Assembly: GCF_900113225.1 (NCBI RefSeq)
Contig: NZ_FOZE01000002.1
Location: forward strand, 1,860,001-1,924,000
Direction: 5' to 3'
Source of the DNA: Mitsuaria sp. PDC51
GTDB taxonomy: Bacteria; Pseudomonadota; Gammaproteobacteria; Burkholderiales; Burkholderiaceae_C
DNA: 64,000 nt
In this document: one piece after another, positions 5,305-9,133 of the stretch
Position numbering within the stretch: position 1 is the first letter of the stretch
Layout of the letters: each line of letters opens with the position of its first letter
Made by a program: the position numbers and the translations under genes
The notes under the pieces: model-generated
What the model saw: only the letters and a program-made list of their open reading frames with translations
Database searches by the model: none
Told to the model about the DNA's origin: nothing

Positions 5305-7176
5305 ATGGGTGTGAAGCGAGCGTTGGCGCCGATCGGGCGCTTGTTCGGCCGGCTGTGGTGGTTCCTGGACGGCACGCGGCGCGTGGTGTTCACGCTGCTG
5401 TTCTGGCTGATCGTGATCGGCCTGGTCTGGGCCGCCACGCGCGGCGGCAAGCCGCTGCAGGAGAAGACGACCCTGGTGCTGGACATCCGCGGCGATGTCG
5501 TCGAGCAGTTCTCGGGCTCGCCACGCGACCAGGCGATCGCCCAGATCAAGGGCGAGGACCGCGCCCAGACGCGGCTGCGCGACATCCTGCGCGCGATCGA
5601 CGCCGCGGCCAAGGACGACAAGATCGTCCAGGTGCTGCTGGAGCTCGACCAGATGGGCTCGGCCACGCCGGCCGCGCTGCATGAGATCGAAGTGGCGCTG
5701 ACCCGCTTCAAGGCCAGCAAGAAGCCGGTCGTGGCCTTCGGCCAGGCTTTCGACCAGCGCGCCTACTACCTGGCCGCGCAGGCCACCGAGGTCTACGTCC
5801 ACCCGATGGGCGGCGTGATGATCGAGGGCTACGGGCGCTACCGCAACTACTACAAGGACGCGCTGGACCGCCTGGGCATCGCGCCCAACGTGATGCGGGT
5901 GGGCACCTACAAGAATGCGGTCGAGCCCTACTTCGCGAACGGGCCGTCCAAGGCGACGCTGGAAGCCGAGGGCTACCTGTACGACGAACTCTGGACCCGC
6001 TACCAGGCCAGCGTCGAGGCCGCGCGCAAGCTGCCCAAGGGCGCGATCCAGCGCGCGATCGACGAGCTGCCGCAGCGCCTTCAGGCGGTCGGCGGCGATC
6101 CCGGCAAGTTCGTGCTGGCCGAGAAGCTGGTCGACGGCCTGAAGACGCAGGACCAGGTCGAGGCGCTGCTGGAGAAGCGCGGCGCCAAGGACGAGAAGCA
6201 GCTGCGCCGCATCGGCCTGGGCGCCTATGTCGCCCAGCTGTCGCCGACGCTGCCCAAGCCGGAAGGCCAGGTCGGCGTGATCGTGGCGGAAGGCGAGATC
6301 GTGGACGGCAACGCCGGCCCGGGCCGCATCGGCGGCGACTCGATGTCCAAGCTGATCCGTCAGGCGCGGGAGGACGACAAGGTCAAGGCCATCGTGCTGC
6401 GTGTGAACTCGCCGGGCGGCAGTGCCTTCGCCTCCGAACTGGTGCGCCGCGAGCTGGAGCTGACGCGCGCCGTCGGCAAGCCGGTCGTGGTGTCGATGGG
6501 CGGCGTGGCCGCGTCGGGCGGCTACTGGATCTCCATGTCCTCGGACGAGGTCATCGCGGACCCCTCCACGATCACCGGCTCGATCGGCGTCTTCGGCATG
6601 CTGCCGACCGCCGAGAAGCTGATGGACAAGCTGTCCATCCACACCGGCGGCTACACGACCACCTGGCTGGCCAATGGGTATGACCCGCGGCGTCCGCTGG
6701 ATCCGCGCCTGGCGCAGGTGGTGCAGTCGTCGATCGAGCACATCTATGCCGACTTCACCGGCAAGGCCGCCCAGGCCCGCAAGAAGACGCAGCCCCAGAT
6801 CGACGCCGTCGGCCAGGGCCGCGTGTGGACGGGCGCGCAGGCGCTGGAGCGCGGCCTGGTGGACCGCAACGGCCTGCTGCAGGACGCGATCGCCAGCGCC
6901 GCCAAGCGCGCCAAGCTCGGCGACGACCCGACGGTGCGCTACGTCGAACCCGAGCGCAGCACGCTCGACCGCCTGCTGACCAGCGTCGGCGACGCGGCCG
7001 CGCCCTCGCTGCGCGGCATGGTGATGCACGCGCTGGGCGGCGTTCCGGCGATGCCGGCCGCGCTTCGTGAGGCCCAGGTCGACATGACCTGGCTGGCCGA
7101 GCAGGCCCAGGCGGGGCCGGCCGGGTCGAAGCCGCCGGTGCGCGCGATCGTGCACTGCCTCTGCACGGCGCCCTGA
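5305..7176 (+). CDS. sppA: signal peptide peptidase SppA (67K type)
   Basis: SppA is a membrane-bound serine protease that degrades signal peptides left in the inner membrane. At 623 residues this is the long, duplicated form. A single N-terminal membrane helix spans about residues 27-44 (VVFTLLFWLIVIGLVW). The catalytic lysine is Lys203 in RVGTYKNAVEP, in the N-terminal repeat, and the serine nucleophile is Ser404 in GGVAASGGYW, in the C-terminal repeat. This matches the split Lys/Ser dyad known for E. coli SppA. NSPGGS at about 368-373 is the ClpP-like oxyanion strand. The ATG at 5305 follows GGGAGGA at a good distance. Confidence 0.95.
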   Translation: MGVKRALAPIGRLFGRLWWFLDGTRRVVFTLLFWLIVIGLVWAATRGGKPLQEKTTLVLDIRGDVVEQFSGSPRDQAIAQIKGEDRAQTRLRDILRAIDAAAKDDKIVQVLLELDQMGSATPAALHEIEVALTRFKASKKPVVAFGQAFDQRAYYLAAQATEVYVHPMGGVMIEGYGRYRNYYKDALDRLGIAPNVMRVGTYKNAVEPYFANGPSKATLEAEGYLYDELWTRYQASVEAARKLPKGAIQRAIDELPQRLQAVGGDPGKFVLAEKLVDGLKTQDQVEALLEKRGAKDEKQLRRIGLGAYVAQLSPTLPKPEGQVGVIVAEGEIVDGNAGPGRIGGDSMSKLIRQAREDDKVKAIVLRVNSPGGSAFASELVRRELELTRAVGKPVVVSMGGVAASGGYWISMSSDEVIADPSTITGSIGVFGMLPTAEKLMDKLSIHTGGYTTTWLANGYDPRRPLDPRLAQVVQSSIEHIYADFTGKAAQARKKTQPQIDAVGQGRVWTGAQALERGLVDRNGLLQDAIASAAKRAKLGDDPTVRYVEPERSTLDRLLTSVGDAAAPSLRGMVMHALGGVPAMPAALREAQVDMTWLAEQAQAGPAGSKPPVRAIVHCLCTAP

Positions 7177-7222
7177 GCGCGGCGCGGTGCGCCTCCGGGG
7201 CGGCGGGCTCCGGAGGCGTGGC

Positions 7223-7228
7223 TATACT
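7223..7228 (+). promoter_or_regulatory. -10 element (TATACT) of the metX leader
   Basis: TATACT lies so that transcription would begin near 7235, three bases before the first stem of the SAM-II aptamer. That fit supports both calls. No convincing -35 box is visible. Confidence 0.6.
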
Positions 7229-7237
7229 CCCGCCCCA

Positions 7238-7289
7238 TGGCGCCGATTTGTCCGGCTTGCGGGCGCCCAAGAAATGCAGCTAAAGAGGG
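7238..7289 (+). ncRNA. SAM-II riboswitch aptamer
   Basis: The 52-base element has the SAM-II layout. Stem P1 is formed by GGCGCC at 7239-7244 with GGCGCC at 7262-7267. The loop starts GATTTG, CCGG and TTGC follow, and the 3' segment GAAATGCAGCTAAAGAGGG supplies the pseudoknot strand. From memory, the order and spacing match the crystallised SAM-II metX aptamer closely, including the AAATG-AGCTAAA core and total length. SAM-II RNAs bind S-adenosylmethionine and switch off methionine genes. Here the element sits directly before metX, the first committed step of methionine synthesis. A covariance search was not possible. Confidence 0.85.
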
Positions 7290-7354
7290 ACACCCGATCC
7301 ACGGATCGAGACCCGGTGTTCCGCTTCAAGCGCGGCGCCGGGTTTTGCTTTTTT
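7287..7354 (+). terminator. riboswitch expression platform: antiterminator and intrinsic terminator
   Basis: The terminator is a long hairpin: 7312-7318 (CCCGGTG) pairs with 7336-7342 (CGCCGGG), with an inner CCGC/GCGG extension, followed by TTTTGCTTTTTT at 7343-7354. A competing antiterminator is visible. GGGACACC at 7287-7294 can pair with GGTGTTCC at 7315-7322, enclosing a small CGATCC/GGATCG hairpin, and this would use up the 5' half of the terminator. The first three bases of the antiterminator are the last three of the aptamer, which links the two. Ligand binding should therefore favour termination. Confidence 0.75.
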
Positions 7355-7364
7355 GGGGTGTTTC

Positions 7365-8552
7365 ATGGGATCTGTCGGTGACGTCACACCGCAGCGCTTG
7401 TTGTTCGACGAGCCGCTGACCCTGCGCAGCGGCGCCCGCATCGCGGGCTACGAATTGATGGTCGAGACCTACGGCCGCCTGAACGAGGACAAGTCCAACG
7501 CGGTGCTGGTCTGCCACGCGCTGAACGCCAGCCACCACGTGGCCGGCACGCATGCCGGCATCGAGAAGAGCGAGGGCTGGTGGGACAACCTGGTCGGACC
7601 GGGCAAGCCGCTGGACACCGACCGCTTCTTCGTCATCGGCATCAACAACCTGGGCTCGTGTTTCGGCTCGACCGGACCGATGCATCTGAATCCGGCCACC
7701 GGCCGCGTCTACGGCAAGGACTTCCCCGTCGTCACCGTGCAGGACTGGGTGGACGCCCAGGCCCGGGTGCTGGACCGCTTCGGCATCCAGCAGCTGGCGG
7801 CGGTGCTGGGCGGCTCGCTGGGCGGCATGCAGGCGCTGGACTGGTCGCTGCGTTACCCGCAGCGCATGCGGCACTGCATCGCCGTAGCGACGGCGCCCAA
7901 CCTGTCGGCGCAGAACATCGCCTTCAACGAGGTCGCGCGGCGCGCGATCATCACCGACCCCGAATTCCACGACGGCTTCTTCTACGAACACGGCGTCGTG
8001 CCGCGTCGCGGCCTGCGGGTGGCGCGGATGATTGGCCACATCACCTACCTCAGCGACGACGTGATGGAAGAGAAGTTCGGCCGCCAGATGCGCGCCGCGG
8101 AGCTGGGCTACTCGACCTCGGACATCGAGTTCCAGATCGAGAGCTACCTGCGCTACCAGGGCGACAAGTTCAGCGAGTACTTCGACGCCAACACCTACCT
8201 GCTGATCACGCGGGCGCTGGACTACTTCGACCCGGCGCGCGAGCACGGCGGCGACCTGAGCCGTACCTTCGCCAGCGCGCTGTGCAAGTACCTGGTGGTG
8301 AGCTTCACGACGGACTGGCGTTTCTCGCCGGCGCGCTCGCGCGAGATCGTCAAGGCCCTGCTCGACAACAAGCGCGACGTCTCCTATGCCGAGATCGACG
8401 CGCCGCACGGCCACGACGCCTTCCTGCTCGAGGATCCGCGCTATCACGGCGTGCTGCGCGCCTATTTCGACCGCATCGCCGGAGAGCATGAACGGCCGGT
8501 GCCCGGTGGCACGGCGGCGGTCTCGCATCGCCTGCAGGGGGTGGCGGTATGA
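7365..8552 (+). CDS. metX: homoserine O-acyltransferase MetX
   Basis: MetX activates the hydroxyl of homoserine with an acyl group from acetyl-CoA or succinyl-CoA, the first committed step of methionine synthesis. The 395-residue alpha/beta hydrolase has the nucleophile elbow GGSLGGMQ with Ser151, the acid in TTDWRFSP and the base in APHGHDAF. In bacteria with a metX-metW pair the enzyme is often a succinyltransferase; sequence alone does not settle that here. The ATG at 7365 has GGGGTG upstream. An in-frame TTG at 7353 lies inside the terminator U-run and is rejected. A SAM-II riboswitch and terminator precede it, and it overlaps metW by four bases (ATGA). Confidence 0.95.
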
Positions 8553-9133
8553 GCGACCGGGCCGTGATGGACATGATTGCCGAGTTGGTGCCGGCGGGGT
8601 CGCGGGTGCTGGACCTGGGCTGCGGCACCGGCGAGCTGCTGGCGCACCTGCAGGCCACCAAGGGCTGCACCGGCTACGGCGTGGAGTTGGACGACGCGAA
8701 CGTGCTGGCCTGCGCGCAGCGCGGCGTGAACGTGATCCAGCTCAACCTGGAGGAAGGGCTGGCGATCTTTGAGGACCAGAGCTTCGACGTCGTGCTGCAG
8801 CTGGAGACGCTGCAGAACCTGCGCAACACCGAGGCGATGCTGCGCGAGACCGCCCGCGTGGGCCGCATCGGCATCGTCAGCTTCCCCAACTTCGCGCACT
8901 GGCCCAACCGGCTGCAGGTGCTGTCGGGCCGCATGCCGGTGACCCGCGTGCTGCCCTACCAGTGGTACGACACGCCCAACATCCGCGTCGGCACCTACGC
9001 CGACTTCCATGTGCTGGCGCGCAAGTGCGGCCTGCGGGTGCTGGACAGCTTCGGCGTCCAGGACGGCCGCCAGGTCCGCGTGCTGCCCAACCTGATGGCC
9101 AGCATGGCGGTGTTCAAGTTCGACCGGGATTGA
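8549..9133 (+). CDS. metW: methionine biosynthesis protein MetW
   Basis: This 194-residue protein has the class I methyltransferase fold. The SAM-binding loop is [11 protein letters not shown] near residue 25, followed by YGVELDD and the family's [12 protein letters not shown] and [14 protein letters not shown] segments. MetW is the constant partner of MetX in proteobacteria. It is needed for methionine synthesis, probably by activating MetX rather than by methylating a metabolite. The gene starts inside the metX stop codon and is co-transcribed under the SAM-II riboswitch, so both proteins respond to the SAM level. Confidence 0.93.

What the first reader, a model, noticed from the sequence alone, without database searches (positions are those of the whole stretch)
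7223..7364. SAM-II riboswitch with a complete transcriptional switch before metX-metW
Seen: a 52-base element with the SAM-II stem, core and pseudoknot strand; a -10 box three bases upstream of where the RNA should begin; an antiterminator (7287-7294 with 7315-7322) and a terminator (7312-7354) that exclude each other. The antiterminator reuses the aptamer's last three bases. Known: SAM-II is best studied in Alphaproteobacteria and often said to act on translation. Inference: here it controls termination, and metX and metW respond together.
Basis: partly seen in the sequence, partly recalled or inferred. Interest (0 to 1): 0.7.

Follow-up and report, generated by a model that had tools for sequence, protein, structure and literature searches.

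The report
Methionine-gene riboswitch with terminator
The stretch in front of the methionine genes metX and metW is an RNA sensor of the SAM-II type that most likely stops transcription when the cell has enough S-adenosylmethionine; this kind of switch is already known, although relatives found on the way, above all one in front of the gene for SAM synthetase, look undescribed.

Summary
A covariance model built from 37 relatives (the window's genus left out) scores window 7237-7290 at 71.2 bits, E 3.7e-20. Rfam's SAM-II model reaches 30.3 bits, under its cut-off of 36, so annotation at that cut-off misses it. Promoter box, aptamer, terminator and metX recur in relatives. Complementarity of the aptamer tail and the terminator's 5' arm is coupled across species, which supports the antiterminator.

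It is a known kind: SAM-II with terminators in beta-proteobacteria was reported in 2007, and the element was very probably described again in 2014 as a 'novel' RNA, metXZ.

Two additions. The same tail strand is also coupled to the Shine-Dalgarno region, which suggests a second, translational level. And the window's genome holds a related RNA before metK for which no Rfam family was found; a model of it matches 241 of 250 family genomes, and metK lies downstream in 98 of 100 family loci examined. By my alignment a base of the SAM site is changed there.

SAM binding and termination were not tested.

The parts
7223..7228 (+). -10 promoter box TATACT; no clear -35
   Evidence: Best match to TATACT in the 40 nt before the core is exact in 79 of 111 relatives' leaders, 5 of 6 in 18, 4 of 6 in 14; exact in 0 of 111 shuffled upstreams.
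7239..7289 (+). SAM-II aptamer (P1 7239-7244 with 7262-7267; core GAUUUG, UUGCG, GCUAAAG; tail to GGG 7287-7289)
   Evidence: RF00521 30.3 bits; held-out model R1 71.2 bits, E 3.7e-20; P1 97.3% paired with changes on both sides at two pairs in 56 leaders.
7283..7295 (+). switch strand: end of the aptamer plus ACACCC; can pair with the terminator 5' arm or with the Shine-Dalgarno region
   Evidence: Duplexes -16.2 (arm) and -15.5 kcal/mol (SD region); coupling tests.
7295..7308 (+). small hairpin CGATC-cacg-GATCG inside the antiterminator
   Evidence: Fold; present in the same-genus leader L035, not in most leaders of alignment A2.
7310..7354 (+). intrinsic terminator hairpin 7310-7344 and U-rich run to 7354
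   Evidence: -23.1 kcal/mol, z -3.9; stem covariation 0.254 against 0.120, 0 of 500 shuffles.
7315..7322 (+). 5' arm segment shared by terminator and antiterminator (GGUGUUCC)
   Evidence: Sequence; fold; coupling of switch strand and arm.
7355..7364 (+). Shine-Dalgarno region GGGGUGUUUC; 7356-7364 complementary to 7287-7295 (9 pairs, two of them G-U)
   Evidence: coupling signal strongest 5-10 nt before the start codon.
7365..8552 (+). metX, homoserine O-succinyltransferase type
   Evidence: NF047916, 667 bits, cut-off 560.
8549..9133 (+). metW, overlapping metX by 4 nt
   Evidence: TIGR02081, 239 bits, cut-off 189.5; coordinates.

Best explanation
It is a SAM-II riboswitch that works as an OFF switch on transcription of metX-metW. 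RNA polymerase starts shortly after the TATACT box. If SAM is scarce, the aptamer tail and the following bases (GGGACACC) pair with GGUGUUCC in the terminator's 5' arm, the terminator cannot form and metX-metW are transcribed. If SAM is abundant it locks the pseudoknot, the tail is held inside the aptamer, the terminator forms and transcription stops before the start codon. Shown here: homology, conserved architecture, terminator stem covariation, species-specific complementarity of tail and arm. Inferred: SAM as ligand, direction of the switch, termination itself. A second layer (tail against the Shine-Dalgarno region in read-through RNA) is supported by sequence coupling but not by structure modelling.
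For: Held-out model 71.2 bits, E 3.7e-20 in the window and 3.4e-18 in the whole genome. RF00521 matches 212 of 299 family genomes at E 0.01 (69 over its cut-off) and 0 of 14 controls; R1 matches 273 of 299, genomes of its seeds included. 111 of 112 loci first fetched carry the core (the exception, L002, is a 13.6-bit hit). Terminator in 101 of 111 leaders against 33 of 111 shuffled ones, and in 166 of 181 distinct metX-linked leaders. Tail strand against terminator 5' arm: own pairs better than all 5000 permutations (z -7.2, 158 distinct leaders); in a set dereplicated at 80% leader similarity z -3.7, 1 of 5000 (n 60); the four control segments give z 0.9 to 1.8 and 0.8 to 1.2. Swapping partners between sister leaders: own better 38, swap better 22, p 0.0029; four controls p 0.29 to 0.89. 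Published: Corbino 2005 (PMC1273637, passages) reports putative terminators behind many of these RNAs and promoters a few nt before P1; [quoted passage not shown] Scheuer 2022 (PMC9373788, passages) predicts termination for S. meliloti metZ and finds the riboswitch short RNA increased at high SAM.
Against: The RF00521 score lies under the curated cut-off. Counted in fixed alignment columns the antiterminator shows no covariation beyond shuffles (313 of 500 reach the observed pairing), probably because its register shifts between species; support comes from the register-free tests. A first version of the permutation test that included the conserved AAAGAGG gave z -6.9 for the arm but also -2.0 and -2.1 for two of three controls. 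The pseudoknot helix P2, placed by recalled homology to the crystal structure, is only 77.9% paired over 56 leaders. The fold of the full leader contains the terminator without any ligand. 15 of 181 distinct metX-linked leaders have no terminator by my criteria. No binding, probing or transcription data exist here.
Confidence: 0.9

Rival explanations
1. One aptamer, two levels: the switch strand acts as antiterminator when SAM is absent and, in read-through RNA whose terminator has formed, pairs with the Shine-Dalgarno region 7356-7364 to block translation.
For: Switch strand against SD region: z -9.5, 0 of 5000 permutations (144 distinct leaders); dereplicated z -3.6, 1 of 5000 (n 56). The signal is strongest at -10 and -5 from the start codon. 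Sister swap 42 against 21, p 0.00043. In L115 and L099 the strand reads GGGACUCC, which mispairs with the arm (GGCGUCC) but fits GGAGU in the SD region (read by eye). L026 and L042 have no terminator by my criteria yet keep a strand complementary to a stretch before the presumed start (sequences; read by eye). The constrained fold of the window's OFF state contains this pairing.
Against: Predicted SD accessibility does not differ clearly between the two states: in 64 dereplicated leaders higher when ON in 27, lower in 16, p 0.12; in all 175, 80 and 40; for the window 0.31 (ON) and 0.36 (OFF). In the slid windows one distant position, +35, reaches z -2.3 in the full set. The first bases of the strand belong to the aptamer, so SAM binding would shorten the pairing.
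Confidence: 0.45
2. Purely translational SAM-II switch, as proposed for the Sargasso Sea metX riboswitch; the hairpin is incidental.
For: The tail AAAGAGG looks like a Shine-Dalgarno sequence; in L025 the aptamer lies directly before an ATG (by eye).
Against: In the window the metX start codon lies 76 nt after the tail's last G (7289), and a terminator lies between aptamer and start codon in 166 of 181 distinct leaders.
Confidence: 0.05
3. Attenuation not governed by SAM (aptamer decayed or bound to another ligand).
For: Score under Rfam's cut-off; weak P2.
Against: The positions invariant over the 37 held-out relatives are intact in the window; methionine genes downstream; tail-arm coupling.
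Confidence: 0.04

Closest known systems
[quoted passage not shown] Barrick and Breaker 2007)
   Same: Single stem and core motifs, promoter just upstream, terminator between aptamer and methionine gene, expected OFF switch.
   Different: Scores below the Rfam cut-off; coupling of the tail to the Shine-Dalgarno region as well as to the terminator arm is not mentioned in the passages that I read.
metXZ RNA element of beta-proteobacteria (Leyn 2014, PMC4239095)
   Same: Before metXW (30 of 35 genomes) or metZ; in 10 of 11 Comamonadaceae, 8 of 8 Burkholderia and 6 of 6 Ralstonia genomes; pseudoknot, terminator and antiterminator; its consensus has an A-or-C position, as CGG[A/C]UUGCGGG has here.
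   Different: That paper treats it as novel and says SAM_alpha occurs only in Rhizobiales and Rhodobacterales. Its figure and alignment were not available to me, so identity is inferred, not compared letter by letter.
S. meliloti metZ SAM-II riboswitch (Scheuer 2022, PMC9373788)
   Same: Predicted to terminate transcription when SAM binds; the riboswitch short RNA increases at high SAM.
   Different: Alphaproteobacterial, controls metZ; studied in cells.
Tandem SAM-II/SAM-V and SAM-II/SAM-II bi-mechanism switches (PMC9481103, passages)
   Same: Combine termination with translation control.
   Different: They use two aptamers; here one aptamer's tail could serve both levels.
RF02424 Bp2_287 'Burkholderia sRNA' (Khoo 2012, PMC3521395)
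   Same: Occupies the same kind of leader; that paper already suggested a cis element for methionine metabolism.
   Different: The Rfam model reads the opposite strand.

Membership tests
SAM-II riboswitch (RF00521) | Match to the family's covariance model | tested here: met
   30.3 bits, E 3e-4 in a 3,001-base search, E 1.4e-4 in the whole genome; 0 of 14 control genomes at E 0.01. The curators' cut-off of 36 bits is not reached; of 212 family genomes with a match only 69 reach it.
SAM-II riboswitch (RF00521) | Conserved core nucleotides (GAUUU, UUGC, GCUAAA) | tested here: met
   The columns invariant over 37 relatives' aptamers (window not among them) are all matched in the window (alignment).
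SAM-II riboswitch (RF00521) | Stem P1 with covariation | tested here: met
   97.3% of cells paired, changes on both sides at two pairs; covariation of P1 and P2 together 0 of 500 shuffles.
SAM-II riboswitch (RF00521) | Pseudoknot P2 | tested here: inconclusive
   Placed by recalled homology to the crystal structure; 77.9% paired, no change on both sides.
SAM-II riboswitch (RF00521) | Binds SAM and rejects SAH | not testable with these tools
   Needs in-line probing or calorimetry.
SAM-II riboswitch (RF00521) | Controls a methionine or SAM gene | tested here: met
   metX and metW by position and family models; metX downstream of 192 of 224 SAM-II loci, not found within 1400 nt in 32.
Transcription-terminating riboswitch | Terminator between aptamer and gene | tested here: met
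Transcription-terminating riboswitch | Exclusive antiterminator that uses aptamer bases, supported by covariation | tested here: met
   Register-free permutation and sister-swap tests; the fixed-column count alone shows none.
Transcription-terminating riboswitch | Ligand-dependent termination | not testable with these tools
   Needs single-round transcription.
metXZ element (Leyn 2014) | Six conserved regions as in their Figure 8 | tested here: inconclusive
   Only text and legend are held; distribution, gene context, pseudoknot, terminator and the A-or-C position agree.

The most novel reading that the evidence does not exclude
Burkholderiaceae carry an expanded SAM-II system of which this leader is one branch. 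In the metX branch a single aptamer acts at two levels, its tail choosing between aptamer pseudoknot, terminator arm and Shine-Dalgarno region. In the metK branch, which the same genome also has, a nearly family-wide RNA without a matching Rfam family keeps the SAM-II frame but reads GAGUUA for GAUUUA, a change that by alignment falls in the ligand site; it may be a distinct sensor class for SAM or a related compound and would fill the gap in metK regulation that Leyn 2014 left open.
Probability: 0.35. Interest if true: 0.75.

Novelty: new member of a known kind. Interest (0 to 1): 0.45.

Why it matters
By itself it is one more transcriptional SAM-II riboswitch, though one that annotation at Rfam's cut-off misses. 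It matters in three ways. It very probably gives the 'novel' metXZ RNA of beta-proteobacteria its identity and ligand (SAM). It offers a testable case of one small aptamer acting on both transcription and translation. And the search model made from its relatives uncovered a widespread metK leader RNA that could explain how these bacteria control SAM synthetase, a question that a comparative study of methionine regulation stated it could not answer (PMC4239095, passage).

Tried and rejected
Fixed-column covariation of the antiterminator gave nothing beyond shuffles; I added register-free duplex permutation and sister-swap tests and report both. A first version of these had non-null controls; the later one leaves out the conserved AAAGAG part. 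Searches used a set with some leaders present twice (same genome in two collections): 192 leaders are 181 distinct; one search repeats the permutation and swap tests on distinct leaders, with the same outcome (before: arm 40 against 20, p 0.0011; SD 45 against 23, p 0.00043). Modelling of Shine-Dalgarno accessibility was inconclusive. A first terminator finder over-extended hairpins; a stricter one gave all counts used. RF01726 (SAM-II long loops) does not explain the metK element: 15.6 bits, E 8.7, elsewhere in the genome. The mir-9033 match (25.8 bits, cut-off 100) was taken as noise. A spermidine-type variant was dropped: that class is SAM-I based (PMC10853860, passages). In one search an orientation shortcut lost several loci; redid the count with strands from the search table.

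Rows dropped before counts: L002 (noise hit) throughout; 10 of 234 loci not located by the expression and position filter (L002 among them, and L025, which has the core but lay outside the filter); leaders without start codon or terminator left out of the coupling tests, then those with segments too short (158 and 144 of 166 distinct ones kept); 8 of 64 dereplicated leaders whose extracted aptamer exceeded 62 nt left out of alignment A1.

Full report
What is there. The gene order is sppA (5305-7176), an intergenic stretch, metX (7365-8552) and metW (8549-9133). The intergenic stretch carries a TATACT box (7223-7228), a SAM-II aptamer (7239-7289), a switch strand that overlaps its end, a terminator hairpin with U-run (7310-7354) and a Shine-Dalgarno region directly before the start codon. 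Among the 80 named loci kept by a search with the MetX protein the closest is Roseateles noduli, 95% identical, so the organism probably belongs to that group of Burkholderiales.

Is it real. Rfam's SAM-II model gives 30.3 bits, E 3e-4, below its curated cut-off of 36, and a scan of the whole window at gathering thresholds lists only one tRNA. I therefore built a model from 37 relatives' aptamers without any genome of the window's genus. It finds 7237-7290 with 71.2 bits, E 3.7e-20; the next best match in 64 kb has 9.9 bits. RF00521 matches 212 of 299 family genomes at E 0.01, 69 of them over the cut-off, and 0 of 14 control genomes; in the order 142 of 300. My model matches 273 of 299 family genomes, genomes of its seeds included.

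Architecture in relatives. Of 112 loci first examined 111 carry the core; the exception is a noise hit. The best match to TATACT upstream is exact in 79 of the 111, five of six in 18 and four of six in 14, and lies 11 to 17 nt before GAUUU in 105; one shuffle of each upstream gave no exact match. There is no recognisable -35. A terminator is found in 101 of 111 leaders against 33 of 111 after shuffling. In a larger set, 224 of 234 loci were located by expression and position; metX lies downstream in 192 and was not found within 1400 nt in 32. The 192 are 181 distinct leaders, of which 166 have a terminator before the start codon. Of the 80 named loci, 73 were located with a core upstream (from the list of misses).

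Alternative pairing. On 36 close leaders the terminator stem is 96% paired with a covariation score of 0.254 against 0.120 in shuffles, 0 of 500. The antiterminator does not exceed shuffles when counted in fixed columns; insertions shift its register. I tested it free of register: the duplex energy of each leader's switch strand with its own terminator arm, against arms of other leaders. Own partners were better than all 5000 permutations (158 distinct leaders, z -7.2) and, in a set dereplicated at 80% leader similarity, than all but one (n 60, z -3.7). Codons 3-11, codons 21-29, an upstream stretch and the terminator's 3' arm gave z between 0.9 and 1.8 and between 0.8 and 1.2. Swapping partners between nearest relatives, which controls for ancestry, gave 38 pairs better with their own partner and 22 with the swapped one, p 0.0029; four controls gave p 0.29 to 0.89. 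An earlier version that included the conserved aptamer end gave z -6.9, but with two of three controls at -2.0 and -2.1. In many leaders the best duplex reaches into the AAAG of the aptamer core, and CUUU is enriched in the terminator hairpins (43 of 175, shuffled mean 13.3, sd 3.0).

A second partner. The same strand is coupled as strongly to the Shine-Dalgarno region: z -9.5, 0 of 5000 (144 distinct leaders); dereplicated z -3.6, 1 of 5000 (n 56). In windows slid along the leader the signal is strongest 10 and 5 nt before the start codon; from +10 to +45 z lies between -2.3 (at +35) and 1.5 in the full set. The sister swap gives 42 against 21, p 0.00043. In the window GGGACACCC (7287-7295) can pair with GGGUGUUUC (7356-7364) at -15.5 kcal/mol, nearly as well as with the terminator arm, -16.2. 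This suggests that read-through RNA whose terminator has formed could hide its ribosome site. Folding in two constrained states did not show a clear difference in accessibility (27 up, 16 down, p 0.12 in 64 leaders; 80 up, 40 down in all 175), so I leave this as a supported idea, not a result.

What is known. Corbino 2005 (PMC1273637, passages) describes putative terminators behind many of these RNAs, promoters a few nt upstream, and lists Bordetella bronchiseptica. [quoted passage not shown] A structure paper (PMC6061858, passages) says that most SAM-II are transcriptional. Leyn 2014 (PMC4239095, passages and section 10) reports SAM_alpha only in two alphaproteobacterial orders and, as novel, an RNA called metXZ with terminator and antiterminator before metXW or metZ in beta-proteobacteria. 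Gene context, taxa, pseudoknot, terminator and an A-or-C position agree with what I see, and SAM-II leaders in other Burkholderiales precede metZ. I conclude that metXZ is very probably SAM-II. A search for 'metXZ' with 'riboswitch' returned only that paper.

Side result 1. Rfam RF02424, a 'Burkholderia sRNA' (Khoo 2012, PMC3521395, section 17 and passages), reads the antisense strand of such leaders: of its 30 best hits in 300 genomes of the order, 17 overlap listed RF00521 hits, all 17 on the opposite strand. Its three hits over cut-off lie before metZ; RF00521 does not report them at E 0.1, whereas my model matches their sense strand with 25 to 33 bits.

Side result 2. In the window's genome my model finds two more copies with E below 1e-5. 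One (31.7 bits, E 5.6e-6) precedes metK. Its kind reads UCGCC-GAGUUA-...-ACUUGC-...GGGCGA-...-GCUAAAGCGUUCGCC. No Rfam family matches that locus at E 1, and in seven metK loci scanned the only matches lie elsewhere in one of them. A model of 13 such leaders (P1 100% paired, changes on both sides at two pairs) matches 241 of 250 family genomes, 223 of 224 good-quality ones, the seeds' genomes among them, and 162 of 250 order genomes. The model also picks up plain SAM-II, so I checked the gene downstream. metK follows in 30 of 30 loci fetched of 33 found by pattern (one further locus, L211, taken from elsewhere, lacks it), in 40 of 40 family loci that I chose from the list, in 28 of the 30 family genomes with the weakest best match (of the other two, one has metK too but outside my position filter, and one is the metX leader), and in 16 of 20 order loci. 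Of the 86 metK-linked loci, 81 read GAGUUA, one GAUUUA, and four were not matched by the expression. The first U of GAUUU is, by my alignment and the recalled numbering of the crystal structure, U10, which one paper lists among the ligand contacts (PMC11508383, passage). Leyn 2014 states that metK had no known methionine regulator in beta-proteobacteria and that a search for one had been unsuccessful. My ten paper searches, three of them aimed at metK (83, 86, 104), listed no paper that I could recognise from titles, abstract starts or the passages read as describing this RNA; the library lacks most subscription journals.

Verdict. Observation confirmed, interpretation supported, known kind. 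The two-level reading and the metK relative deserve follow-up more than the finding itself.

Noticed in passing
L237/L265 (own genome, outside the window), L243-L272, L294-L333, L334-L361, L363: SAM-II-like leader RNA before metK, nearly universal in the family (model matches 241 of 250 genomes; metK downstream in 98 of 100 family loci examined); no Rfam match at E 1 in the loci tried. It keeps the SAM-II frame but reads GAGUUA where SAM-II has GAUUUR, a change that by alignment lies in the ligand site. Many members carry an insert of variable length between P1 and the GCUAAAG strand, and a GGCAACGC downstream that could pair with GCGUUCGCC.
   Followed up: partly
L193, L194, L195 and other RF02424 hits: Rfam RF02424 (Bp2_287, 'Burkholderia sRNA') reads the antisense strand of SAM-II leaders; its three hits over cut-off lie before metZ and have extra bases, possibly a small hairpin, after P1; RF00521 does not report them at E 0.1.
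   Followed up: partly
L236:1501-1556 (own genome, outside the window): Third SAM-II-like copy in the window's genome (47.7 bits), with GAUUUA, before a short open frame without a Pfam match; a bacterial SRP RNA lies nearby on the other strand.
   Followed up: no
L199, L200, L211, L212: Second SAM-II-like elements close to the first one; tandem SAM-II is known from the literature (44 examples in PMC9481103), but the second element of L211 is of the GAGUUA type.
   Followed up: no
L025, L026, L042: Leaders without a terminator by my criteria: in L025 the aptamer lies directly before an ATG; L026 and L042 keep a strand complementary to a stretch before the presumed start, as if control had moved to translation (read by eye).
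   Followed up: no
L197, L202, L204, L218: SAM-II in other Burkholderiales also precedes a metN-like gene, a cystathionine gamma-synthase family gene, metH and metK, a wider regulon than metX and metZ.
   Followed up: partly
L040, 60 nt after the first GCUAAAG: A second GCAGCUAAAGAAGGAC lies shortly before the terminator, perhaps a partial duplication of the riboswitch tail.
   Followed up: no
7190-7218: A G+C-rich inverted repeat (CGCCUCCGG ... CCGGAGGCG) directly upstream of the promoter, possibly the end of sppA transcription; no U-run follows.
   Followed up: no
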